Shown: positions 44,970 to 46,194 of the stretch, piece after piece | Position numbering within the stretch: position 1 is the first letter of the stretch | How the letters are laid out: every line of letters begins with the position of its first letter | Origin: Cystobasidium ongulense | Lineage: Eukaryota; Basidiomycota; Cystobasidiomycetes; Cystobasidiales; Cystobasidiaceae | Assembly: GCA_022835595.1 (NCBI GenBank) | Contig: BQUP01000002.1 | Coordinates: 1,970,534-2,034,533 of the forward strand | Reading direction: 5' to 3' | DNA: 64,000 bases | Notes under the pieces: model-generated | Database searches by the model: none | Seen by the model: only the letters and a program-made list of their open reading frames with translations | What the model was told of the DNA's origin: nothing | Position numbers and translations under genes: made by a program

Positions 44970-46194
44970 CTACTTGCTCATCATCATCTATGAACACAAC
45001 CACCTGTCAGCTTTGCCCAAACTATGTTTGAATCTTCTAGACGGACCTTCACAAACTCCTCGTAGTTGATTTGTCCATCGCCATCAACGTCTGTACAAGC
45101 GACCGCACGGTTAGCTTGCAGCCGTGTCTACGTGCACATATTCACTTACCTGCTTCCCGAATCATCTCTTCGACTTCAGCGTCTGAGAGCTTCTCTCCGA
45201 GGTTTGTCATGACGTGACGGAGTTCAGCAGCGGAGATGAATCCTGTTTGTGGAATCAAAAGGCCAACTTTAGCTCGAATCCTCCAATAGTGGCAATCTAG
45301 GCCGAATAGAACAACGCGACTGACCATTGCCGTCCTTGTCGAAGACCTTGAAGGCTTCCTTGATCTCCTCTTCCGAGTCTGTGTCCTTCATCTTCCTCGC
45401 CATCATGGTCAAGAACTCGGCTGCGGGCAGGCAATGATCCCGGTTAGTTGCAGGTGGTCATGGCCGACTTGACTTGAGATGCTTACGGAAGTCAATAGTG
45501 CCATTGCCATCTGCATCGACTTCGTTGATCATGTCCTGAAGTTCAGCCTCTGTGGGGGTCTGACCTAACGAGCGCATGACTGTGCCGAGCTCCTTGGTGG
45601 TGATGGTTCCATCTCCATCTGTAAAGCATGGCATACATTGTTAGACATGGCTGACAAGACTCTCGTGGCTAGTGGAGACTACTCACCCTTGTCCTATGGC
45701 ATTCAGAAGCGAGGCCACCCAAAAGAGCAAGCACAAAAGCATAGCGGGACGAGAATAGCGCGTCAATGCTTGAAATAGGCGGAGCAGCGCAGACCGCCTG
45801 CAGCAGCAGCTTCAACGACTCACGAAGAGGGAGAAAGCCTCCTTGAACTCTGTGTGCCGAAGGATGCGAACATGATGCAGGCGTGTCAGTCGTGTTCGCA
45901 GCAGACAGGAGGACGACGAGCACGCACCTGAGATTTGCTCTGTGAGTGCAGTAAACGAAAGGTGCAGTCAGGAGTCAGTGTGTGTATCGGTGGACTCGCT
46001 GCTCGTGTGCTCTGCGCGTCCTGCATGCACTCCACGATGCATAGCTGGATCACAGCACGGCAGCACAATGCGGGCAGCGTTGCACACGGCAGCGACGAGT
46101 GGGCGCACCTTCAGACTGGCGAGCATGGGACAGCACTTAGCAATAGGAATGTGGAGTGCTTGGCCATGCGTCTGCTTACAAGTTGGTCTGCCAT
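44970..46194 (-). CDS. CMD1: Calmodulin, ten exons including three micro-exons
   Basis: Minus exons 46194-46180, 46115-46109, 45939-45928, 45849-45824, 45693-45687, 45618-45487, 45420-45325, 45242-45150, 45090-45047 and 44987-44970 give exactly 149 residues, the universal calmodulin length. The product starts [20 protein letters not shown] and ends VKMMMSK, with four EF-hand loops ([48 protein letters not shown]), so all four calcium sites look intact. It is the main calcium sensor that activates calcineurin and CaM kinases. Exons 2 (7 bases), 3 (12) and 5 (7) are micro-exons, each flanked by AG and GT. The start lies only 130 bases from the divergent RRM gene. Confidence 0.95.
45687..45693 (-). 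other. CMD1: 7-base micro-exon of calmodulin (exon 5)
   Basis: Sequence GACAAGG on the minus strand, acceptor CATAG, donor GTGAGT. It encodes Asp-Lys, the first two residues of EF-hand loop 1, plus one base of the following Asp. Confidence 0.85.
45928..45939 (-). other. CMD1: 12-base micro-exon of calmodulin (exon 3)
   Basis: Encodes most of EQISE; acceptor CACAG, donor GTGCGT on the minus strand. Both neighbours are needed to keep frame. Confidence 0.85.
46109..46115 (-). other. CMD1: 7-base micro-exon of calmodulin (exon 2)
   Basis: Sequence TCTGAAG on the minus strand, preceded by GCCAG and followed by GTGCGC. It supplies Ser-Glu and one base of the next Glu, turning MADQL + QIS into the canonical MADQLSEEQIS. 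Without it the reading frame is lost. Confidence 0.85.

What the first reader, a model, noticed from the sequence alone, without database searches (positions are those of the whole stretch)
44970..46194. Calmodulin split into ten exons with three micro-exons of 7, 12 and 7 bases
Seen: the frame and the exact 149-residue calmodulin sequence are recovered only by using exons of 7 (46109-46115), 12 (45928-45939) and 7 (45687-45693) bases, each with AG before and GT after. Four of the first five exons are 15 bases or shorter. Known: exons this short usually need special recognition, and automatic gene finders routinely miss them. Inference: this lineage either preserves an ancient dense intron set or has gained introns in calmodulin, and its splicing machinery must handle very small exons.
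Basis: partly seen in the sequence, partly recalled or inferred. Interest (0 to 1): 0.75.

Follow-up and report, generated by a model that had tools for sequence, protein, structure and literature searches.

The report
Fungal calmodulin gene with tiny exons
This is an ordinary, intact calmodulin gene from what looks like a fungus, whose first 22 codons are cut into five very small exons (15, 7, 12, 26 and 7 bases); such micro-exons are already known in fungi, so it is mainly a warning for gene annotation.

Summary
On the minus strand, 46194-44970 holds ten exons of 15, 7, 12, 26, 7, 132, 96, 93, 44 and 18 bases that join into a 450-base frame for a complete 149-residue calmodulin, 137 of 149 residues identical to fly calmodulin. 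A spliced alignment with fly calmodulin finds the same exons at three of four intron penalties. The GT-AG parse of each micro-exon stretch is unique; with the outer splice borders kept, shuffled DNA gives a parse in 0 of 20000 and 1 of 20000 trials. All nine introns are short (59-169 bases) and GT-AG, with GTNNGY donors.

Micro-exons are in print for fungi, down to 6 bp in Phanerochaete P450 genes and one base in Fusarium. Fungal splicing is reported to proceed mainly by intron definition, so special micro-exon recognition need not be invoked. One micro-exon border probably matches an animal calmodulin intron; ancient against gained introns cannot be settled, because no fungal genomes could be searched. 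No RNA evidence was available. Verdict: real, a new member of a known kind, low interest.

The parts
46180..46194 (-). exon 1, 15 bases: ATG to L5 (MADQL)
   Evidence: same border in spliced alignment
46116..46179 (-). intron 1, 64 bases, after codon 5, phase 0; GTAAGC...CAG
46109..46115 (-). exon 2, micro-exon of 7 bases (S6 E7 and first base of E8)
   Evidence: unique parse; control
45940..46108 (-). intron 2, 169 bases, codon 8 phase 1
45928..45939 (-). exon 3, micro-exon of 12 bases (rest of E8, Q9 I10 S11, first base of E12); of the three micro-exons the only one whose skipping alone keeps frame
45850..45927 (-). intron 3, 78 bases, codon 12 phase 1; multiple of three without stop, so retention would insert 26 residues
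45824..45849 (-). exon 4, 26 bases (E12 to F20)
45694..45823 (-). intron 4, 130 bases, after codon 20, phase 0; only CTRAN branch-site candidate lies 9 bases from the AG
45687..45693 (-). exon 5, micro-exon of 7 bases (D21 K22 and first base of D23, start of EF-hand loop 1)
   Evidence: unique parse; control
45619..45686 (-). intron 5, 68 bases, codon 23 phase 1
45487..45618 (-). exon 6, 132 bases
45421..45486 (-). intron 6, 66 bases, codon 67 phase 1
45325..45420 (-). exon 7, 96 bases
45243..45324 (-). intron 7, 82 bases, codon 99 phase 1
45150..45242 (-). exon 8, 93 bases
45091..45149 (-). intron 8, 59 bases, codon 130 phase 1
45047..45090 (-). exon 9, 44 bases
44988..45046 (-). intron 9, 59 bases, after codon 144, phase 0
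44970..44987 (-). exon 10, 18 bases including the TAG stop
   Evidence: one search recovers the 15 coding bases

Best explanation
An intact, ordinary calmodulin gene of an intron-rich, probably basidiomycete fungus. Nine short spliceosomal GT-AG introns interrupt 450 coding bases, and several sit so close together near the 5' end that three internal exons are only 7, 12 and 7 bases long. Each intron is most likely recognised as a unit (intron definition), and neighbouring introns around a micro-exon are most likely removed one after the other, because two sets of splicing factors can hardly sit on 7 bases at once. The 7-base exons must be included to keep the frame. Shown: anatomy, frame, protein, splice dinucleotides, uniqueness of the parse. 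Inferred: that the exons are spliced in vivo, the order of removal, and the fungal group.
For: Complete collinear 149-residue calmodulin with EF-hand matches in Pfam. Unique parse, and 0 or 1 of 20000 chance parses with the outer borders kept. Unbiased spliced alignment gives the same exons at 3 of 4 penalties. Introns 59-169 bases; GTNNGY donor in 9 of 9 calmodulin introns and 16 of 17 introns modelled in three adjacent genes. Skipping either 7-base exon, or retaining intron 1, 2, 4 or 5, truncates the protein at 23-37 residues (introns 6-9 not tried). The neighbouring RRM gene is also dense (5 introns in 393 coding bases, smallest internal exon 29). Fungi are reported to splice mainly by intron definition (PMC2397502, passages).
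Against: No RNA data, so inclusion in vivo is not shown. Intron 4, before a 7-base exon, has only a poorly placed CTRAN branch candidate (9 bases from the AG) and intron 1 only CTAAG; no chance rate was computed for this permissive motif, and none of the three Mod(r)-gene introns has a candidate at the usual distance either. At intron penalty 22 the micro-exons are not chosen. Organism not identified.
Confidence: 0.93

Rival explanations
1. Regulated micro-exon: the 12-base exon 3 is a cassette whose skipping gives a 145-residue calmodulin lacking four residues of the N-terminal helix, or intron 3 retention adds 26 residues, tuning calmodulin output.
For: Skipping exon 3 and retaining intron 3 are both frame-preserving; the skipped protein still matches the EF-hand model in four stretches; a switch-like micro-exon is reported in Trichoderma Xlr2 (PMC11121469, passages).
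Against: One of three micro-exons being a multiple of three, and one of the five introns tested for retention being open and in frame, is unremarkable. Cassette exons are rare against retained introns in fungi and protists together (average cassette fraction 3%, though about 20% in two of the fungi tabled; PMC2397502, passages). No RNA data.
Confidence: 0.04
2. Pseudogene or unspliced decoy copy, with the real calmodulin encoded elsewhere.
For: No expression data; no whole genome is held to look for a second copy.
Against: All ten exons are in frame without internal stop, splice dinucleotides intact at all nine introns, 137 of 149 residues identical to fly calmodulin.
Confidence: 0.02
3. The N-terminal micro-exons are a chance reading; the real gene starts in another exon and has a different N-terminus.
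For: With a stiff intron penalty (22) a five-exon model without the micro-exons scores best.
Against: That model loses residues 1-11, breaks the first EF-hand loop and the C-terminus; the micro-exon parse is unique and arises in 0 of 20000 and 1 of 20000 shuffles.
Confidence: 0.01

Closest known systems
Micro-exons of Phanerochaete chrysosporium cytochrome P450 genes (PMC1184071, passages)
   Same: Genes of a basidiomycete with exons of 2-10 codons, shortest 6 bp, and frequent small introns.
   Different: Those belong to a large, variable gene family; here three micro-exons are packed into the first 22 codons of highly conserved calmodulin.
One-nucleotide exon of Fusarium CYP621A (PMC12940212, passages)
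   Same: Micro-exon inside a conserved motif, forced by the protein, of a size that annotation pipelines often miss.
   Different: Smaller (1 base), ascomycete, and backed by RNA reads; ours has none.
Regulated micro-exon of Trichoderma Xlr2 (PMC11121469, passages)
   Same: Micro-exon in a fungal gene.
   Different: There inclusion depends on glucose; here nothing shows regulation and two of three micro-exons cannot be skipped alone without frame loss.
Animal calmodulin genes (abalone, PMC6171432, passages and Discussion; human structure recalled)
   Same: Very small 5' coding exon (first exon only the start codon); exon 2 probably ends at codon 12 phase 1 (read from a primer), the position of intron 3 here.
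   Different: Four introns in abalone against nine here; no exon of 7 or 12 bases reported in what was seen.
Aspergillus calmodulin gene (recalled only)
   Same: An intron after S-L-F (codon 20) is recalled.
   Different: Later intron positions recalled as different; not checked by any search.

Membership tests
Calmodulin | about 149 residues with four EF hands, collinear with known calmodulins | tested here: met
   1-149 aligned to 1-149; PF00036, four stretches; 137 of 149 identical to fly
U2-type GT-AG spliceosomal introns | GT...AG ends and donor consensus like neighbouring introns | tested here: met
   9 of 9 GT-AG; GTNNGY in 9 of 9 (16 of 17 over three genes)
U2-type GT-AG spliceosomal introns | branch site at a usual distance from the AG | tested here: inconclusive
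   CTRAN at 19-36 bases in 8 of 9 calmodulin introns, intron 4 only at 9 bases; 0 of 3 Mod(r)-gene introns at such a distance; permissive motif, chance rate not computed
Micro-exon (internal exon of about 30 bases or less) | length 30 or less with splice sites on both sides and needed for the full protein | tested here: met
   (exons 2, 3, 5; exon 4 of 26 bases also qualifies)
Micro-exon (internal exon of about 30 bases or less) | included in mature mRNA | not testable with these tools
   no RNA reads available
Introner-like elements (recent intron gain by copying) | intron sequences similar to other introns of the genome | tested here: not met
   no match at E 0.05 among 17 introns of three genes; against the window only stray matches of 18-22 bases; the rest of the genome could not be searched

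The most novel reading that the evidence does not exclude
The cluster of micro-exons is kept by selection as a splicing-controlled dial on calmodulin: in-frame use of the 12-base exon 3 or retention of the open, in-frame intron 3 makes N-terminal calmodulin variants, while mis-splicing of the 7-base exons sends transcripts to decay.
Probability: 0.03. Interest if true: 0.55.

Novelty: new member of a known kind. Interest (0 to 1): 0.2.

Why it matters
Mostly practical: a gene finder that ignores micro-exons would lose the N-terminus and break the first EF-hand loop of a central regulatory gene, as the stiff-penalty alignment shows, and calmodulin would wrongly look truncated. The tight set also makes a handy test gene for how fungi splice 7-base exons and whether neighbouring introns must be removed in order.

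Tried and rejected
Own-genome search for further calmodulin copies: no genome is held for the window. Comparison with other fungal calmodulin genes: viral contigs gave 1 locus and genome contigs 3 loci. Of these 4 only L002 was read: a eukaryote-like calmodulin in a pond bacterial MAG, so probably a stray contig, with two evident short introns at other positions. It does not help. No tRNA or Rfam match to place the organism. Introner-like intron gain: no intron-to-intron match among 17 introns. NCBIfam gave five matches of the protein, among them a bacterial EF-hand effector family, all below their cut-offs; I take them as EF-hand resemblance or weak noise.

First chance control disturbed the outer splice borders and was therefore too easy; repeated with borders kept, same conclusion.

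Literature: ten searches listed no paper that I could recognise from its listing as giving intron positions of a basidiomycete calmodulin gene. Searches listed 20 each of 118, 25, 71 and 343 papers. The library holds open-licence papers only, so this is no proof of absence.

Full report
What is there. On the minus strand between 46194 and 44970 lie ten exons of 15, 7, 12, 26, 7, 132, 96, 93, 44 and 18 bases, separated by nine introns of 64, 169, 78, 130, 68, 66, 82, 59 and 59 bases. Joined, they make a 450-base frame for a 149-residue protein without internal stop. The protein aligns over its whole length to calmodulins of solved structures, matches the EF-hand model PF00036 in four stretches, and is identical to fly calmodulin (2bkh_B) at 137 of 149 residues.

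Is it more than chance. The pattern AG-7 bases-GT is common (457 places on both strands of the window), so the splice dinucleotides alone prove nothing. The encoded peptide does. An exhaustive enumeration of GT-AG parses with introns of at least 40 bases finds a single parse for residues 1-13 between the ATG and F13 (residue 6 as S or T, residue 11 as S or A), and a single parse for L19-G24 between exons 4 and 6. In a first control a parse arose in 0 of 5000 and 1 of 5000 dinucleotide-preserving shuffles, and in 0 of 5000 and 1 of 5000 random window pieces. That control also disturbed the outer splice borders, which is too easy a test. With the first and last six bases of each gap kept, a parse arose in 0 of 20000 and 1 of 20000 shuffles and in 0 of 20000 and 0 of 20000 window pieces from outside the gene. 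A spliced alignment with fly calmodulin that knows nothing of micro-exons gives the same exons at intron penalties 6, 11 and 16. At 22, the stiffest of four tried, it prefers five exons and loses the first 11 residues, the start of the first EF-hand loop and the C-terminus.

Surroundings. A gene on the plus strand starts at 46325, leaving 130 bases between the two start codons. It encodes a 130-residue protein with one RNA-recognition motif (PF00076), part of which resembles the N-terminal RRM of PPIE. It has six exons (46, 99, 104, 64, 29, 51 bases), so its introns are dense too. The next gene is a Mod(r) protein (PF07200; VPS37-like, a recalled name) with four exons. Exon borders of these two genes were set by hand, the RRM gene with help from a spliced alignment. 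Only these three genes were modelled; longer genes in the window, such as a DHX8/PRP22-like helicase, were not, so no window-wide intron density is claimed.

How it most likely works. All nine calmodulin introns are GT-AG with donors matching GTNNGY; over the three genes 16 of 17 do. A CTRAN branch-site candidate lies 19-36 bases from the AG in eight of nine calmodulin introns. Intron 4 has only one, 9 bases from the AG, and intron 1 has CTAAG; none of the three Mod(r)-gene introns has one at such a distance, and no chance rate was computed, so this motif is weak evidence either way. Short introns with normal ends fit recognition of each intron as a unit, the mode that PMC2397502 concludes for fungi, basidiomycetes included (passages). 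Under that mode a 7-base exon needs no recognition of its own. That neighbouring introns leave one after the other is my inference from size, not shown. Skipping exon 2 or exon 5 alone, or retaining intron 1, 2, 4 or 5, truncates the protein at 23-37 residues. Skipping exon 3 (145 residues) or retaining intron 3 (175 residues) keeps the frame, as does skipping exons 4 and 5 together or 2, 3 and 4 together. The 7-base exons should therefore be included constitutively, with exon 3 the only micro-exon of the three that could act alone as a cassette.

Old or new introns. PMC6171432 (passages, Discussion) reports abalone calmodulin genes with four introns whose first exon carries only the start codon. 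One of its exon-2 primers ends at the base matching codon 12 phase 1, the position of intron 3 here; I infer, but have not seen stated, that this is the exon border. I recall the same border in human CALM genes, and an intron after codon 20 in Aspergillus calmodulin; neither comes from a call. [quoted passage not shown] Among 17 introns no two match each other at E 0.05, so there is no sign of recent copying among them. No fungal calmodulin gene could be fetched, so the question stays open.

Is it new. No in kind. Micro-exons of 2-10 codons, shortest exon 6 bp, are described in Phanerochaete P450 genes (PMC1184071, passages), a one-base exon in Fusarium (PMC12940212, passages), and a regulated micro-exon in Trichoderma (PMC11121469, passages). 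The last paper also states that functional micro-exons had not been described before in filamentous fungi, so experimental work on them is thin. The ten literature searches listed under Tried and rejected showed me no report of this calmodulin structure, but four of them listed only part of their hits and the library holds open-licence papers only. I file it as a new member of a known kind: ordinary biology, useful as an annotation warning.

Noticed in passing
46195-46324: Only 130 bases separate the start codons of calmodulin (minus) and an RRM/PPIE-like gene (plus): a compact divergent promoter region.
   Followed up: partly
46325-47109: RRM protein of 130 residues resembling the N-terminal RRM of PPIE, with no cyclophilin domain in the modelled protein; five introns in 393 coding bases.
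   Followed up: partly
45850-45927: Calmodulin intron 3 is a multiple of three without in-frame stop; retention would give a 175-residue protein.
   Followed up: no
3127-6519 (-), 23841-26978 (-), 28781-31354 (+): Three long open frames of 1131, 1046 and 858 codons without a Pfam match at E 0.001.
   Followed up: no
about 54311-58071 (-): DHX8/PRP22-like spliceosomal helicase gene, with what looks like an in-frame intron in its C-terminal part.
   Followed up: no
L002 336-850: Eukaryote-like calmodulin with short introns in a contig filed as a Verrucomicrobiaceae MAG, probably a stray eukaryotic contig.
   Followed up: partly
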